This document shows, one piece after another, positions 14,440 through 18,796 of a stretch of 64,000 nucleotides of DNA. The position numbers were made by a program, and so were the translations under genes. Position 1 is the first letter of the stretch. Every line of letters begins with the position of its first letter. The notes below the pieces were generated by a model. It searched no databases and was not told the origin of the DNA. It worked only from the letters and a program-made list of their open reading frames with translations. Source of the DNA: Paraburkholderia ginsengiterrae (lineage in GTDB: Bacteria; Pseudomonadota; Gammaproteobacteria; Burkholderiales; Burkholderiaceae); the NCBI RefSeq assembly GCF_001645125.1, contig NZ_LXKA01000333.1:1-64000 (forward strand), in the 5' to 3' direction.

Positions 14440-14619
14440 CTAGATTGCGTTGTTTGCCGCCGTGAGCAGCTTCTGGAACACGGCCTGGAAGCCCGTCGTG
14501 CCAGACAGGAACGTGCCGAGTGCGACCAGCACGGCGACGATGATGCCGCCAAGAACTGCATATTCCAGCGAGCTGACACCGCGCTCGTCGCGCGAAAGGG
14601 TTTGGATAAAACGCAGCAT
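14440..14619 (-). CDS. flp: Flp pilin (major subunit, 59 aa)
   Basis: A very short gene, first of the tad operon. It begins MLRFIQTLSRDERG, followed at the processing site by VSSLEYAVLGGIIVAVLVAL. Cleavage after Gly14 would place Glu at +5 and Tyr at +6 of the mature pilin, the hallmark of Flp pilins, followed by one hydrophobic helix. GGAG (AAGGAGTC) lies 7-10 bases upstream of ATG 14619. The stop is TAG at 14440-14442. It should be the major pilus subunit, cut by TadV. Confidence 0.93.
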   Translation of the reverse strand: MLRFIQTLSRDERGVSSLEYAVLGGIIVAVLVALGTFLSGTTGFQAVFQKLLTAANNAI

Positions 14620-14642
14620 GGGAAGACTCCTTGTTAAGTAAC

Positions 14643-14657
14643 GCCTGCATAGCAGGC
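14643..14657 (-). promoter_or_regulatory. Hairpin in the flp leader
   Basis: GCCTGC and GCAGGC form a 6-bp stem with a 3-base loop, 23 bases upstream of the flp start codon and just ahead of its ribosome site. It may stabilise or control the pilin mRNA. No clear sigma-70 or sigma-54 promoter could be fixed by eye. Confidence 0.35.
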
Positions 14658-15094
14658 TTGCTACGCCGATTTGCTACGAAGGAGGACTAACTCATCCCCC
14701 AAACACGTCTAACGGCAATTGGCCGGCAAAGTTGAGCCCATTGCGCGTGGACTGGGGTTCGGTGTGGACGCCCTTCCTCAATACACAGCGTATGTCCGGT
14801 CGCGGCAACGCGATCCATTGAATAGAGGCATAAAACCGTTCCAGTTTCTTTCTTATAGAAGCCCCAAAGATCAGACGAATAGAGCGTTCGCGGTAACGTT
14901 GAAGGCTTCAGGAGTGCGTCTGACTTCAACTGCCCGTGTCGAACAAACGTTGCCGTTCAAATGGACATGCAGCCCAACGGAAAGACATGCCCCGTTCTTT
15001 CCCTACCCTTTTGTAGGATATCTACCCATCGGTGCCGTCAAAGGCTTGCGGGACAATCGTCTACAACACACTAGCCGGTCGGTCCGTCAAGATC
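14658..15094. other. Intergenic region between flp and the DUF2946 run
   Basis: About 440 bases between divergent transcripts. It should hold the promoters for the tad operon (minus) and the DUF2946/TlpA run (plus). Short open frames on both strands show no family signature or good ribosome site. A small palindrome GTAGGATATCTAC is seen at about 15013-15025. No gene is supported. Confidence 0.4.
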
Positions 15095-15370
15095 ATGCCT
15101 CGCCTTTTCCATTTGAAGACTGGCGGCATTCTCAGATTGCTTGCAATCCCGATGGCAATGCTCGCACCGCCGGTCTCGCAAACTCTTTCGGCCGACCAAA
15201 CTGTCGATCTGATTACGGGTGCTTTCTGTTCCTCGCGAAACGGTCCTGTCTTTCAGTTACCCAACGAAGTACCTGCCCGGCCGATCCGGTCCATTCCGGC
15301 TGATGGCCTGCATAAAGGAAGTGCTACCCAGGTCCGCTATCCGATGGATAGAATCCTGAAAAATTTTTGA
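15095..15370 (+). CDS. DUF2946-like small secreted protein, degenerate copy
   Basis: A 91-residue protein with an N-terminal hydrophobic signal (ILRLLAIPMAMLAPPVSQ). Its segment APPVSQTLSADQTVDLITG then AFCS parallels APLVSQLLVASRADEPVS then AICS in the next gene, so the two look like tandem paralogues. This copy keeps only one Cys (C45) and lacks the ACGYC/HH part of DUF2946. The start at 15095 is chosen because the hydrophobic segment follows it directly; the ribosome site is weak. The stop lies 6 bases before the next ATG. Confidence 0.55.
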   Translation: MPRLFHLKTGGILRLLAIPMAMLAPPVSQTLSADQTVDLITGAFCSSRNGPVFQLPNEVPARPIRSIPADGLHKGSATQVRYPMDRILKNF

Positions 15371-15376
15371 CTACTC

Positions 15377-15742
15377 ATGAAGCTCGGCGCCCACAAACAC
15401 TCTGTCGCATGGCTTGGCCTCATCGCCATGTGGCTCGTCGTTTTCGCGCCGCTCGTGAGTCAGCTGCTCGTTGCGTCCCGCGCCGATGAGCCGGTCAGTG
15501 CCATTTGTTCGGCAGTCGACAGCGGCACTTCCGCCGCACACCATGCGTCTCCGGACAAGATCGCGGCGTGCGGATACTGCGATTTCCTCGCTCATCATGT
15601 AGCCGCTCTGAGCGTCTCGCCGGCCGGTCTCGTTGCAACGGTATTGTTAGCGGATGCGCAAGTATCGGCGCCCCCTCCGTTTGTCCCTCATGCCGCCGCG
15701 TTTCCCTCTGGCCGGCCTCGCGATCCTCCCGTCTTTTCCTAG
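15377..15742 (+). CDS. DUF2946 family protein
   Basis: A 121-residue protein with an N-terminal membrane/signal helix (VAWLGLIAMWLVVFAPLVSQ) and the DUF2946 pattern of Cys and His: C44, H55-H56, then ACGYCDFLAHH with C65, C68, H73 and H74. This looks like a metal-binding periplasmic or membrane-tethered module. The family has no established function; it is often met near copper genes, which is general knowledge and not shown here. Its neighbours are a Cys-rich barrel and a TlpA-like protein. Confidence 0.75.
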   Translation: MKLGAHKHSVAWLGLIAMWLVVFAPLVSQLLVASRADEPVSAICSAVDSGTSAAHHASPDKIAACGYCDFLAHHVAALSVSPAGLVATVLLADAQVSAPPPFVPHAAAFPSGRPRDPPVFS

Positions 15743-15877
15743 CCGTTGCTCTGTCAGTCGCAGCGTCGGCCTGCTTCGTAATCAGGCCGTCGCCGCAGTC
15801 TGTCGTCTCAGGAAAACACGCACGTCCTTTCACCCGAGGGGGGATGACGCGCGTCCGTATCGAGCGGAGAGGAAATC

Positions 15878-16936
15878 ATGTCAACCAACCAGAACACCCT
15901 ATTGCGCTGCACGCTGCCTTTCGTCATGGCCGCGATCTTTCCGGCTGCGGCTCACGCATGCGCCACTTGCGGCTGCTCCTTGAGCACCGATGCAGCGATG
16001 GGCTATTCCGCCGCCCCAGGCTGGCGAATCAACATCGAATACGACTTCATCAATCAGAACCAGTTGCGCAGCGGTACCAGTTCAGTGCCGAACACGCAGC
16101 CCGCCAGTATCAATGACGCTGGTGGCAGCCAGGAGGTGGAGCGCCAGACGATCAATCGATACATCAATCTCGGCATCAGCTATAGCCCCAGCGCGAGCTG
16201 GAACTTCAGCGCTCTCATTCCGTACGTTTACCGTAGCCATACGACTTACGGCAACGCGACGACAGACCAGCTCACTCCCGACAACTTGAGCGGCGCAACC
16301 AGCAAAGGCCTGGGAGATATCAAGCTCATCGCAAGCTATCAGGGGTTTCTGCCAACGCACAATCTTGGATTGCAGCTTGGCGTCAAGTTACCCACGGGCC
16401 GGTACGGCGGTCAGAATGTCGACACCGGCGCAACCGTTGGGCACAATCCCGTGTTCTTCTCGAACGGCCCCAATGCGGCCGCAGGCCAGGCGCTCGACAC
16501 CAGCTTGCAGCCCGGCACCGGCAGTACCGACCTTATCGTCGGCGCCTACTATTACCAGGCGATCAGCCAGAACTTCGACGCGTTCATTAACGGGCAATTC
16601 CAGTCCGCAATCGTCGAAAATCTCGACCATGAAGGCGCGACATACCGCCCCGGAAATCTGGCCAGCTTGAGTGCCGGATTGCGCTATGAAGCGAACCCGA
16701 AGTGGGTTCCGCAGTTGCAAATCAACGTTACTCGCAAGAGCCACGACCAGGGCACGCTCGCGGATACGGCGAACACAGCGGGAACTGTCGTTTATCTCAG
16801 CCCCGGCGTCACCGTCAACGTGTGGAAAAACCTGGAGGTGTACGGCTTCGTGCAACGTGCGATATACAGCAAGCTCGACGGTTATCAGGTGTTTCCACGC
16901 TGGACCGGCAACGTGGGGATGAGCTATGCGTTCTGA
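15878..16936 (+). CDS. Outer-membrane beta-barrel (transporter-like) with N-terminal CATCGC motif
   Basis: A 352-residue protein with a signal peptide likely cut after AHA27, so the mature protein would start CATCGC (C28, C31, C33). The remainder has alternating amphipathic strands (RINIEYDFIN, NLGISYSPSASWNFSALIPYVY, FDAFINGQFQ). It ends with aromatic-terminal strand GNVGMSYAF, typical of outer-membrane barrels of the phenol-degradation MetA/'transporter' type. AGAGGAAATC precedes the ATG. Three Cys at the mature N-terminus suggest metal binding or a thiol redox site. The TlpA-like gene overlaps its end by 11 bases. Confidence 0.8.
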   Translation: MSTNQNTLLRCTLPFVMAAIFPAAAHACATCGCSLSTDAAMGYSAAPGWRINIEYDFINQNQLRSGTSSVPNTQPASINDAGGSQEVERQTINRYINLGISYSPSASWNFSALIPYVYRSHTTYGNATTDQLTPDNLSGATSKGLGDIKLIASYQGFLPTHNLGLQLGVKLPTGRYGGQNVDTGATVGHNPVFFSNGPNAAAGQALDTSLQPGTGSTDLIVGAYYYQAISQNFDAFINGQFQSAIVENLDHEGATYRPGNLASLSAGLRYEANPKWVPQLQINVTRKSHDQGTLADTANTAGTVVYLSPGVTVNVWKNLEVYGFVQRAIYSKLDGYQVFPRWTGNVGMSYAF

Positions 16937-17510
16937 CGTATCGCGAGCGCAACCGGCGCATGAGGACACCGCATCCTCGATATCGACTGCGCGGCGCGCG
17001 TGGTTGCGTGCCGTGCTGGCAGTGTCTCTAGGTGCAGGCGGGTTGGGCCGGCCCTTGGCAAGCCGCGCTGCCACGCTGGCCGTTGGTCAACCTGCTCCGC
17101 CTCTGGTCCTTCATACACTGGATGGCCGGGACATCGACACCGCCGATCTGCTCGGCAAAGTGGTTATTCTGACGTTCTGGGCGACCTGGTGCGAGCCGTG
17201 CCGTGAGGAACTGCCTCTTTTGTCCGCTTACGCCGCGCGCAATTCGGACCGGGGGCTGCAAGTGCTCGGGTTCAGTCTGGATGGAGCTGACGATCTGTCT
17301 GCGGTTCGCGAGGCTGCAGCGGGCTTGAGCTTTCCAGTGGGCCTGCTGGGCAGCGCGTGGGCAGGCGACTATGGGCGAATGTGGCGCATTCCAGTGAGCT
17401 TCACGATCGGACGATCGGGTCTCCTGGTGGACAACGGCTGGGACGACAAATATCCCGTTTGGACATCCGAACGCTTGCAACGCGTCGTCACGCCACTTCT
17501 GAGGCAATAG
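16926..17510 (+). CDS. TlpA-like thioredoxin-fold thiol oxidoreductase
   Basis: A 194-residue exported protein. The N-terminus has twin Arg (R23-R24, ARRAWLRAVLAVSLGAGG) ahead of a hydrophobic stretch, so Tat export is possible. The thioredoxin domain has the active site WATWCEPCREELP with C89 and C92, preceded by LLGKVVILTF; a cis-Pro is visible in WRIPVSFTI. TlpA-like proteins reduce periplasmic disulfides, often in metal insertion. The overlap with the Cys-rich barrel gene suggests the barrel or the DUF2946 proteins as clients; that is inference. Confidence 0.85.
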   Translation: MRSDVSRAQPAHEDTASSISTARRAWLRAVLAVSLGAGGLGRPLASRAATLAVGQPAPPLVLHTLDGRDIDTADLLGKVVILTFWATWCEPCREELPLLSAYAARNSDRGLQVLGFSLDGADDLSAVREAAAGLSFPVGLLGSAWAGDYGRMWRIPVSFTIGRSGLLVDNGWDDKYPVWTSERLQRVVTPLLRQ

Positions 17511-17668
17511 ATAGGTAAGTGCCCGATTCGACGAGATGAATGACCGCTGTACCCAAAAGCGGCCGAAGAAGTGACACCTGACCCACAGGCCGAAGTGGGT
17601 CCAGGTGCAACTTCGCCGATGCAGTTGCGCGCACGACGAGCCATACGCACATGCTCCAAAAAAGCGCG

Positions 17669-18796
17669 CTAAAGGATACTGTCCAAAGCGTTGGCAAGCC
17701 TCGCGACCGCGCCCTCGACGTCATGCAGCTTGTCCAGGCCAAATAATCCGATGCGGAAAGTCTTGAAGTCTTCAGGCTCGTCGCATTGAAGGGGAACGCC
17801 GGGTGCGATCTGCAAGCCGGCATCGGCGAATTTCTTGCCGGATCGTATGCCGTCATCGTCGGTATAGCTGACCACGACGCCCGGAGCCTGAAGACCTTCA
17901 GCCGCCACGCTCCTGAAACCCTTGGCGCTCAGAAGTGCGCGAACGCGAGTGCCGAGTTCAACCTGCTCCGCTCGCACTTTGTCGAAACCATATGCCTCGG
18001 TTTCCTTCATGACGTCGCGCAGCGTCGCGAGACTATCCGTGGGCATCGTCGCGTGGTACGCGAACCCGCCGTTCTCGTAGGCTTCCATAACCTGCAGCCA
18101 CTTGCGAAGATCGCAAGCGAAACTGCTGCTGGTTGTGGCGTCGATTCTTTCGCGGGCGAGAGGACTGAGCATGACCAGTGCGCAGCAGGGTGACGCGCTC
18201 CATCCCTTTTGCGGCGCGCTGATCAGGACATCGACGCCGCTGGCCTGCATGTCCACCCAGATCGTACCGGAGGCGATGCAATCCAGTACAAACATGCCAC
18301 CGACCGCATGCACAGCGTCGGACACCGCGCGTAAATAGGCATCAGGCAGCATCATCCCGGATGCCGTTTCGACATGTGGCGCAAAGACCAGATCCGGTTT
18401 GTGTTCCCTGATCGCAGCGACCACCTCTTCAATCGGCGCCGGCGCATACGCGGCCTGCCTTCCCTGTTCGACAGGACGCGCCTTCAACACTATCGATTCA
18501 GACGGAATGCTGCCCATGTCGAAAATCTGCGACCAGCGGAAACTGAACCAGCCGTTGCGAATCACCAGACACTTCCTTTGCGTCGCGAACTGCCGGGCGA
18601 CGGCTTCCATGCCGAAAGTCCCGCTGCCTGGGACGATAACGGCCGATTGCGCGTTGTAGACCTTTTTCAGGGAGCCGGATATATCCCGTACGACTCCCTG
18701 AAAAAGCTGCGACATATGGTTGATGGATCGGTCGGTGTAAACGACTGAATATTCGAGGAGTCCCTCGCGGTCGACATCGGGGAGTAACCCTGGCAC
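17669..18796 (-). CDS. Class V aminotransferase (alanine-glyoxylate aminotransferase-like)
   Basis: A 375-residue PLP enzyme. Visible are VIVPGSGTFGMEAVARQF, the PLP-Asp region FVLDCIASGTIWVDM and the Schiff-base Lys in ISAPQKGWSASP (near residue 196), followed by a C-terminal domain ending FRIGLFGLDKLHDVEGAVAR. GTG 18796 has CGGAGG 5 bases upstream and gives a normal-length protein; the frame stays open 46 codons further but without a family match. It is divergent from alanine dehydrogenase, which suggests alanine/pyruvate/glyoxylate exchange. Confidence 0.85.
   Translation of the reverse strand: MPGLLPDVDREGLLEYSVVYTDRSINHMSQLFQGVVRDISGSLKKVYNAQSAVIVPGSGTFGMEAVARQFATQRKCLVIRNGWFSFRWSQIFDMGSIPSESIVLKARPVEQGRQAAYAPAPIEEVVAAIREHKPDLVFAPHVETASGMMLPDAYLRAVSDAVHAVGGMFVLDCIASGTIWVDMQASGVDVLISAPQKGWSASPCCALVMLSPLARERIDATTSSSFACDLRKWLQVMEAYENGGFAYHATMPTDSLATLRDVMKETEAYGFDKVRAEQVELGTRVRALLSAKGFRSVAAEGLQAPGVVVSYTDDDGIRSGKKFADAGLQIAPGVPLQCDEPEDFKTFRIGLFGLDKLHDVEGAVARLANALDSIL

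What the first reader, a model, noticed from the sequence alone, without database searches (positions are those of the whole stretch)
15095..17510. Candidate undescribed metal/thiol system: two DUF2946 proteins, CATCGC barrel and TlpA
Four genes in a tight + strand run encode two small exported proteins (one with ACGYC and HH ligands) and an outer-membrane barrel whose mature N-terminus would be CATCGC. The fourth is a TlpA-like reductase with an 11-base overlap with the barrel. The simplest reading is metal (perhaps copper) capture at the envelope with the TlpA protein keeping the Cys reduced. I know no described pathway with this set.
Basis: inference. Interest (0 to 1): 0.7.

Follow-up and report, generated by a model that had tools for sequence, protein, structure and literature searches.

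The report
Copper-switched operon with Cys-tipped barrel
A small operon in a soil bacterium appears to begin with a known type of copper-sensing stall peptide that controls an outer-membrane pore with a cysteine-tipped end and a thiol-reducing partner, which suggests a little-studied route for handling scarce copper.

Summary
The four + strand genes are real; their reading changes. The second gene (15377-15742) is a genuine DUF2946 protein with the sequence hallmarks of CruR, the copper-responsive arrest-peptide uORF of Bordetella: CGYC, an RDPP tail 3 residues from the end, 46 residues between, and a 135-nt gap. It is most likely a cis-acting sensor, not an exported metal binder. The "other DUF2946" (15095-15370) is a sub-threshold partial match without either motif, weakly constrained, seen only in close Paraburkholderia. 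The payload is a COG4313-like barrel with an N-terminal CATCGC and a TlpA/ResA-like thioredoxin. Of 76 named barrel loci scanned, 60 have an upstream ORF ending RxPP/RxSP; TlpA lies nearby in 63 of 80. Eleven loci place a PCuAC copper chaperone between barrel and TlpA; one is a cruR-PepSY-PCuAC-TonB receptor-barrel-TlpA copper locus. The same genome has two more CruR units (TonB receptor-PepSY; CopC). Best reading: a CruR-controlled copper-supply module with a barrel family not described in the papers I found. Stalling, metal binding, direction of regulation and transport are inferred. New variant of a known kind.

The parts
14992..15094 (+). Conserved block upstream of the run: putative promoter and 5' leader
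   Evidence: About 100 nt aligned nearly without change in five Paraburkholderia while the sequence further upstream is unrelated. No sigma-70-like site was found here by consensus scan.
15095..15370 (+). 91-aa leader ORF, partial DUF2946-like N-terminus; probable decaying cruR copy or translated leader
   Evidence: 23.5 bits against cut-off 23.7, positions 3-41 of 117; no CxxC, no PP tail; dN/dS 0.40-0.87; 91 aa in L054-L057, 70 aa in L058.
15377..15742 (+). cruR-like uORF (DUF2946, 121 aa): signal/TM segment, CGYC (65-68), RDPP (115-118), 3-residue tail
   Evidence: PF11162 55.5 bits, 55 bits in the genome search; motifs and spacing.
15724..15873 (+). Possible RNA stem: 15724-15732 (over the two Pro codons) with 15864-15873 (barrel ribosome-binding site)
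   Evidence: RNAalifold on 7 sequences; overall covariation term unfavourable, +2.17. Strong in 11 of 54 loci, not a family-wide trend. A lead only.
15878..16936 (+). Outer-membrane barrel of COG4313-like fold, 352 aa, CATCGC at 28-33
16926..17510 (+). TlpA/ResA-like thioredoxin, 194 aa, WCEPC, twin-Arg-like RRAWL in the signal region
   Evidence: PF00578 64 bits; ResA, CcmG, TlpA relatives in PDB; RRx-motif in 52 of 64 homologues.

Best explanation
A copper-responsive operon of the CruR kind. The DUF2946 gene is a sensor uORF. When copper is scarce the ribosome stalls at its RDPP tail, which keeps transcription and/or translation of the downstream genes open; when copper is present it binds the CGYC of the nascent chain, stalling is relieved and the operon is shut. 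The payload is an outer-membrane channel of COG4313 fold whose mature N-terminus begins with CATCGC, next to the segment that in the solved relative folds into the barrel from the periplasmic side. I propose that these cysteines bind Cu(I) at the periplasmic mouth or plug, and that the co-expressed TlpA-like protein keeps them (or a receiving chaperone such as PCuAC) reduced, so that the module brings in or hands over copper when it is limiting. Shown here: gene order, motifs, predicted fold, conservation and copper-gene context. Inferred: stalling, copper sensing, direction of regulation, metal binding by the barrel, redox partnership, transport.
For: CruR hallmarks in the second ORF against PMC9426467; RDPP reported as partly arrest-permissive and CruR as stalling in vitro (PMC12992588 passages). 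Of 76 named loci scanned plus the window, 60 plus the window have an upstream ORF with an RxPP/RxSP tail. CxxC-to-R spacing is 43-47 residues in 41 of the 44 such ORFs that have a CxxC, without any spacing filter. TlpA nearby in 63 of 80. PCuAC in 13 loci, 11 of them between barrel and TlpA (PF04314 confirmed on six, four of them between). L061: cruR, PepSY_TM, PCuAC, second DUF2946, TBDT, barrel, TlpA. L060: barrel, TlpA, CopC, CopD. Two other CruR units in the same genome: TBDT-PepSY_TM, and a 318-aa gene with CopC. CrtA and CrpH, the Bordetella partners of CruR, serve copper supply (PMC12914433, PMC13038864; passages).
Against: No expression, stalling or metal data for this operon. 17 of the 61 uORFs have no CxxC, and 14 loci show no such uORF. 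The Rho C>G signal is high in the window (top 0.09% of windows) but not family-wide (38 of 74 loci, p 0.17). COG4313 channels are thought to carry hydrophobic molecules. Only 15 of 80 loci hold a further gene of seven families tested, and two of the seven (TBDT, PepSY_TM) are not copper-specific. CutF, also called DUF2946-like, is turned on by copper, so direction cannot be read from family alone. PMC13038864 says P120A+P121A in cruR raised expression, whereas Roy reports loss with P141A+P142A; I did not resolve this.
Confidence: 0.55

Rival explanations
1. Same uORF logic but the other way round: a CutF-like switch turned on by copper, the barrel and TlpA serving copper tolerance (sequestration or export, PcoB/CopB-like).
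Against: Tail position and CxxC spacing match CruR. Neighbours include PCuAC, TBDT and PepSY_TM, which serve supply. PcoB ranks far below COG4313 channels.
Confidence: 0.2
2. The barrel is an ordinary COG4313 channel for a hydrophobic or organic ligand (for example a copper-binding metabolite), or exports a substrate as FapF does; copper regulates it but does not pass as an ion.
For: Fold: 4rl8 and FapF are the top matches; FapF is the only weak sequence match in PDB, E 0.0045; COG4313 proteins are implicated in uptake of hydrophobics. 19 of 51 relatives match Phenol_MetA_deg at E<=0.1.
Against: The conserved N-terminal cysteines and the linked TlpA have no role in that reading; no catabolic genes are linked in the loci examined by clustering (families in at least 4 loci).
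Confidence: 0.15
3. General thiol/oxidative-stress module without metal specificity.
For: AhpC-TSA/TlpA domain beside a Cys-tipped exported protein.
Against: CruR-type uORF and copper-gene neighbours; ResA/TlpA-like WCxPC site.
Confidence: 0.04

Closest known systems
CruR-CrtA-CrpH operon of Bordetella pertussis (PMC9426467, PMC12914433, PMC13038864)
   Same: DUF2946 uORF first, CxxC and RxPP tail at the same spacing, long gap, exported outer-membrane barrel next; this genome also has the TBDT-PepSY_TM version (L135)
   Different: Payload is a COG4313-like barrel with N-terminal cysteines and a TlpA instead of a TonB receptor and PepSY_TM
CutF-CutO-CutG of Rhodobacter capsulatus (PMC9973294)
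   Same: DUF2946-like nascent sensor in cis; stem over the next gene's ribosome-binding site
   Different: CutF raises output with copper and controls a multicopper oxidase; gap, tail and payload differ
COG4313 / Phenol_MetA_deg (PF13557) channels, for example Pput2725 (4rl8)
   Different: N-terminal C-x-x-C-G-C motif, copper uORF, TlpA partner; window protein itself has no PF13557 match
TlpA-PCuAC-Sco route of CuA-site assembly (recalled; mentioned in a passage)
   Same: A TlpA-like reductase and, in 11 loci, PCuAC in one gene run
   Different: Linked here to an outer-membrane barrel and a copper uORF; Sco genes were not looked for

Membership tests
CruR uORF (second ORF) | DUF2946 (PF11162) over the cut-off | tested here: met
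   55.5 bits, whole profile
CruR uORF (second ORF) | CxxC and RAPP-like tail 3 residues from the end, about 45 residues apart | tested here: met
   CGYC, RDPP, 46 residues, tail 3; RDPP instead of RAPP
CruR uORF (second ORF) | First gene of a copper operon, long gap to the next | tested here: inconclusive
   135-nt gap; copper genes in relatives' operons, not in this one; a further ORF precedes it by 6 nt
CruR uORF (second ORF) | Ribosome stalling and copper-dependent Rho termination | not testable with these tools
   C>G peak at 15672 in the window, not family-wide
CruR uORF (first ORF) | DUF2946 over cut-off, CxxC, RxPP tail | tested here: not met
   23.5 against 23.7 bits, no CxxC, no PP tail
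COG4313 / PF13557 channel (barrel) | PF13557 sequence match | tested here: inconclusive
   None for P0003; 19 of 51 relatives at E<=0.1, best 1.7e-7
COG4313 / PF13557 channel (barrel) | Barrel fold of 4rl8 | tested here: met
COG4313 / PF13557 channel (barrel) | N-terminus occluding the lumen | tested here: inconclusive
   Residues 19-41 have pLDDT under 50
TonB-dependent copper receptor (CrtA, OprC) | Plug domain and large TonB receptor barrel | tested here: not met
   352 aa, no Plug or TonB-receptor match in Pfam up to E 1
TlpA/ResA-like thioredoxin | AhpC-TSA/Redoxin fold with WCxxC and export signal | tested here: met
   PF00578 64 bits, WCEPC, N-terminal RRAWL and hydrophobic stretch; none of the NCBIfam TlpA, ResA or DsbE cut-offs is reached

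The most novel reading that the evidence does not exclude
A widespread family of copper-gated outer-membrane channels independent of TonB: a COG4313-type pore whose cysteine-tipped N-terminal plug is the metal site and is kept reduced by a dedicated TlpA-like protein, placed under copper control by arrest peptides whose sensing heads are exchangeable (CxxC DUF2946; heads in Thiomonas and Chlorobiaceae that no Pfam model recognises) while the RxPP-type tail is kept.
Probability: 0.35. Interest if true: 0.75.

Novelty: new variant of a known kind. Interest (0 to 1): 0.52.

Why it matters
Few outer-membrane copper importers are known, and the copper-specific ones named in the papers seen here are TonB-dependent receptors. 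A barrel of another kind that travels with a copper arrest peptide, a TlpA and sometimes PCuAC would be a second route and is directly testable. It would also give a likely role to many unannotated barrels: the window protein has no Pfam or NCBIfam match. That the same payload sits under differently headed RxPP uORFs makes the family a natural test set for how arrest-peptide sensors are swapped.

Tried and rejected
Rejected: two DUF2946 effectors (the first ORF fails the tests). Rejected: TonB-dependent receptor.

Tried, negative or weak: Rho C>G bubble across the family (upstream exceeds both controls in 38 of 74 loci, p 0.17). PP codons as a general anti-ribosome-binding-site arm (mean duplex energy not better than a codon-matched null, fraction 0.10, both for all 54 and for 35 thinned loci). 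Rfam on 14600-17800: no match up to E 1. Promoter/terminator scan of 14640-17720: one promoter-like site inside the barrel gene (expected 0.7), no terminator. Plasmid collection: 5 records, one covering over 80% of the barrel at 28.6% identity. Structure by sequence: the barrel profile finds only FapF, E 0.0045-0.0075, and not 4rl8. First ORF in 100 genomes of the family: 15 genomes (own included) match at E<=0.001, the others only over parts within residues 3-71 at 36-51% identity, so no orthologue was seen. Literature: copper starvation in Cupriavidus, 0 papers with all five terms; MetA-pathway channels with copper, 2 papers, unrelated by title and abstract start.

No paper seen describes this barrel in a copper setting. 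That rests on searches of a library that lacks most subscription journals, and on word searches inside PMC9426467, PMC9973294, PMC12914433 and PMC6769254. Supplementary tables (for example Table S1 of Roy 2022) could not be read, so the barrel may be listed there.

Counting details: the 80 named loci were found with two DNA patterns, one of which (ACA[TS]CGCSL) contains the Cys motif, so motif conservation among them is partly built in. One search examined 76 of the 80 (not L099, L104, L110, L115) plus the window; it mis-picked the tail in L120 (another ORF there ends RAPPMLPQAA) and took RPPP instead of the final SQAPP in L123 and L124. One search accepted only spacings of 35-65 and took the one nearest 47, missed RDSP tails and gave one spurious row (L104); one search repeats the spacing without that filter. 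The TlpA distance filter missed L102 and L127, which one search shows. Of the other 15 loci without TlpA, five (L077, L083, L119, L121, L133) have under 170 nt after the barrel. In one search the L091 stretch was in a wrong frame; one search repeats it in frame. The thinning was by hand.

Full report
What is there. The window lies in an 8.5-Mb genome of 393 contigs; the closest barrel relatives in named genomes are Paraburkholderia. Between RcpC/CpaB and leader-peptidase genes on the - strand and a class-V aminotransferase on the - strand stand four + strand ORFs: 15095-15370, 15377-15742, 15878-16936 and 16926-17510. The last two overlap by 11 bases.

The DUF2946 genes. Only the second ORF is a DUF2946 protein (55.5 bits, whole profile). 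The first gives 23.5 bits against a cut-off of 23.7 over profile positions 3-41 and has neither CxxC nor a PP tail. Among the named loci it is 91 aa in four Paraburkholderia and 70 aa with its end in another frame in P. lacunae. Its dN/dS is 0.40-0.87 in ten comparisons, against 0.13-0.42 (six comparisons) for the second ORF and 0.04-0.08 (ten) for the barrel. I read it as a decaying copy or a translated leader.

The second ORF as CruR. Roy et al. (PMC9426467; abstract, sections 9-11 and passages seen) showed that Bordetella CruR, a DUF2946 protein, is a uORF: its CxxC is needed for copper control, its RAPP for expression, 45 residues separate the motifs with a variation of one or two in the family, and long gaps usually follow. 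The window protein has CGYC at 65-68, RDPP at 115-118, 46 residues between and 3 after, then 135 nt. Fujiwara et al. (PMC12992588; passages) report that CruR stalls in vitro and that RDPP is a partly permissive arrest variant. So this protein is most likely a cis-acting switch.

Other CruR units in the genome. PF11162 hits three places. Besides the window, one heads a TonB-dependent receptor and a PepSY_TM gene (the crtA-crpH arrangement), and one heads a 318-aa gene without Pfam match and a CopC gene.

Distribution of the barrel. Of 200 genomes of the family, 20 match at E<=1e-3, 14 of them strongly, the own genome counted in both. Of 398 genomes spread over the phylum, 14 match at E<=1e-10, own included. 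In named genomes 139 stretches encode a relative and the best 80 were kept: Paraburkholderia, Pandoraea, Ralstonia, Cupriavidus, Burkholderia, Glaciimonas, Herbaspirillum, Thiomonas, Polaromonas and others, with bins labelled Chlorobiaceae or Chlorobium among them.

Conservation of the unit. A script given 76 of the 80 loci and the window found an ORF with an R-x-PP or R-x-SP tail ending 20-420 nt before the barrel in 60 of the 76 and in the window (three tails mis-picked, see Tried and rejected). By eye I add L060 (tail RAQPPP) and L061 (cruR further upstream in the same run); three Chlorobium-type loci have a degenerate version; 14 show none, one of which has only 406 nt upstream. Under the strict rule (R-x-PP in the last 12 residues, ORF of 60-260 aa) it is 50 of 79 loci, or 50 of 111 ORFs in the upstream stretch against 32 of 3868 elsewhere in the same loci. 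The loci are related, so the Fisher value there is not a true probability; at least six of the 32 are themselves cruR-like genes. Of the 61 uORFs, 44 have a CxxC before the tail, and in 41 of these a CxxC lies 43-47 residues before the R: 25 times 45 and 10 times 46 as the nearest (no spacing filter). 17 have no CxxC. TlpA lies nearby in 63 of 80, five of them on the other strand, with two more visible.

Copper context. PCuAC is found in 13 loci, in 11 of them between barrel and TlpA (PF04314 confirmed on six of the 13). L060 (Glaciimonas soli) continues with CopC and CopD. L061 (Burkholderia guangdongensis) reads cruR, PepSY_TM, PCuAC, a second DUF2946, TonB receptor, barrel, TlpA, with CopC, CopD, an MbnB/TglH/ChrH-type enzyme and DUF2282 on the other strand nearby. 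In all, 15 of 80 loci hold a further gene of seven families tested, of which PepSY_TM and TonB receptors are not copper-specific.

TlpA. WCEPC, with ResA, CcmG and TlpA among its PDB relatives; 52 of 64 homologues carry a twin-Arg-like RRx motif before the mature domain, so Tat export is plausible, not shown.

RNA level. A stem pairing 15724-15732 (over the PP codons) with 15864-15873 (the barrel's ribosome-binding site) is predicted for seven related sequences. It recalls the stem-loop over the cutO site in the CutF system (PMC9973294 section 5); a stalled ribosome would cover one arm. The overall covariation term is unfavourable and the pairing is no family-wide trend, so it is a lead. The first proline codon of the motif is CCT or CCA in 22 of 35 hand-thinned loci against 22% of other uORF prolines.

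Different heads, same tail. The uORFs of L076 and L092 (Thiomonas), L091, L102 (unnamed proteobacterial bins), L099 and L110 (Chlorobium-type) have no Pfam match at E<=0.1, and that of L077 matches DUF2946 below its cut-off, while those of L067, L071, L086, L123 and L130 are DUF2946. Of the eight other uORFs tested outside the Paraburkholderia, this is a hand-made sample. Either the head has been exchanged or it has diverged beyond recognition while the tail stayed.

Verdict. The operon is a CruR-type copper unit with a payload that I could not find described. My estimates: copper control 0.8; supply 0.55 against tolerance 0.2; the bold reading, a copper-gated channel with exchangeable sensor heads, 0.35.

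Noticed in passing
L099, L110, L115: Loci labelled Chlorobiaceae or Chlorobium carry the barrel (CAACGC) at about 60% identity, with a CCGHC small ORF upstream and no TlpA in the 6 kb after it; looks like transfer between phyla.
   Followed up: partly
L134:4686-6531: Second CruR unit of this genome: cruR, a 318-aa exported-looking protein without Pfam match, CopC. A similar protein start (HAxxGDRVFPxTxAVDDPGVGDE) is seen in L061 9015-9914.
   Followed up: no
L076-L081, L084, L087, L092, L101, L120, L125 upstream ORFs: uORFs with a RAPP tail but no CxxC at CruR spacing and, in the two tested, no DUF2946 match; a shared LPYC or similar and His residues may be another sensor head.
   Followed up: partly
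uORF RxPP motifs, 35 thinned loci: The first proline codon of the arrest motif is CCT or CCA in 22 of 35, against 22% of other prolines in the uORFs; may matter for stalling or for RNA pairing.
   Followed up: partly
16926-17000 and homologues: TlpA homologues carry twin-Arg-like signal motifs in 52 of 64, unusual to my knowledge for this family (recalled).
   Followed up: no
   Followed up: no
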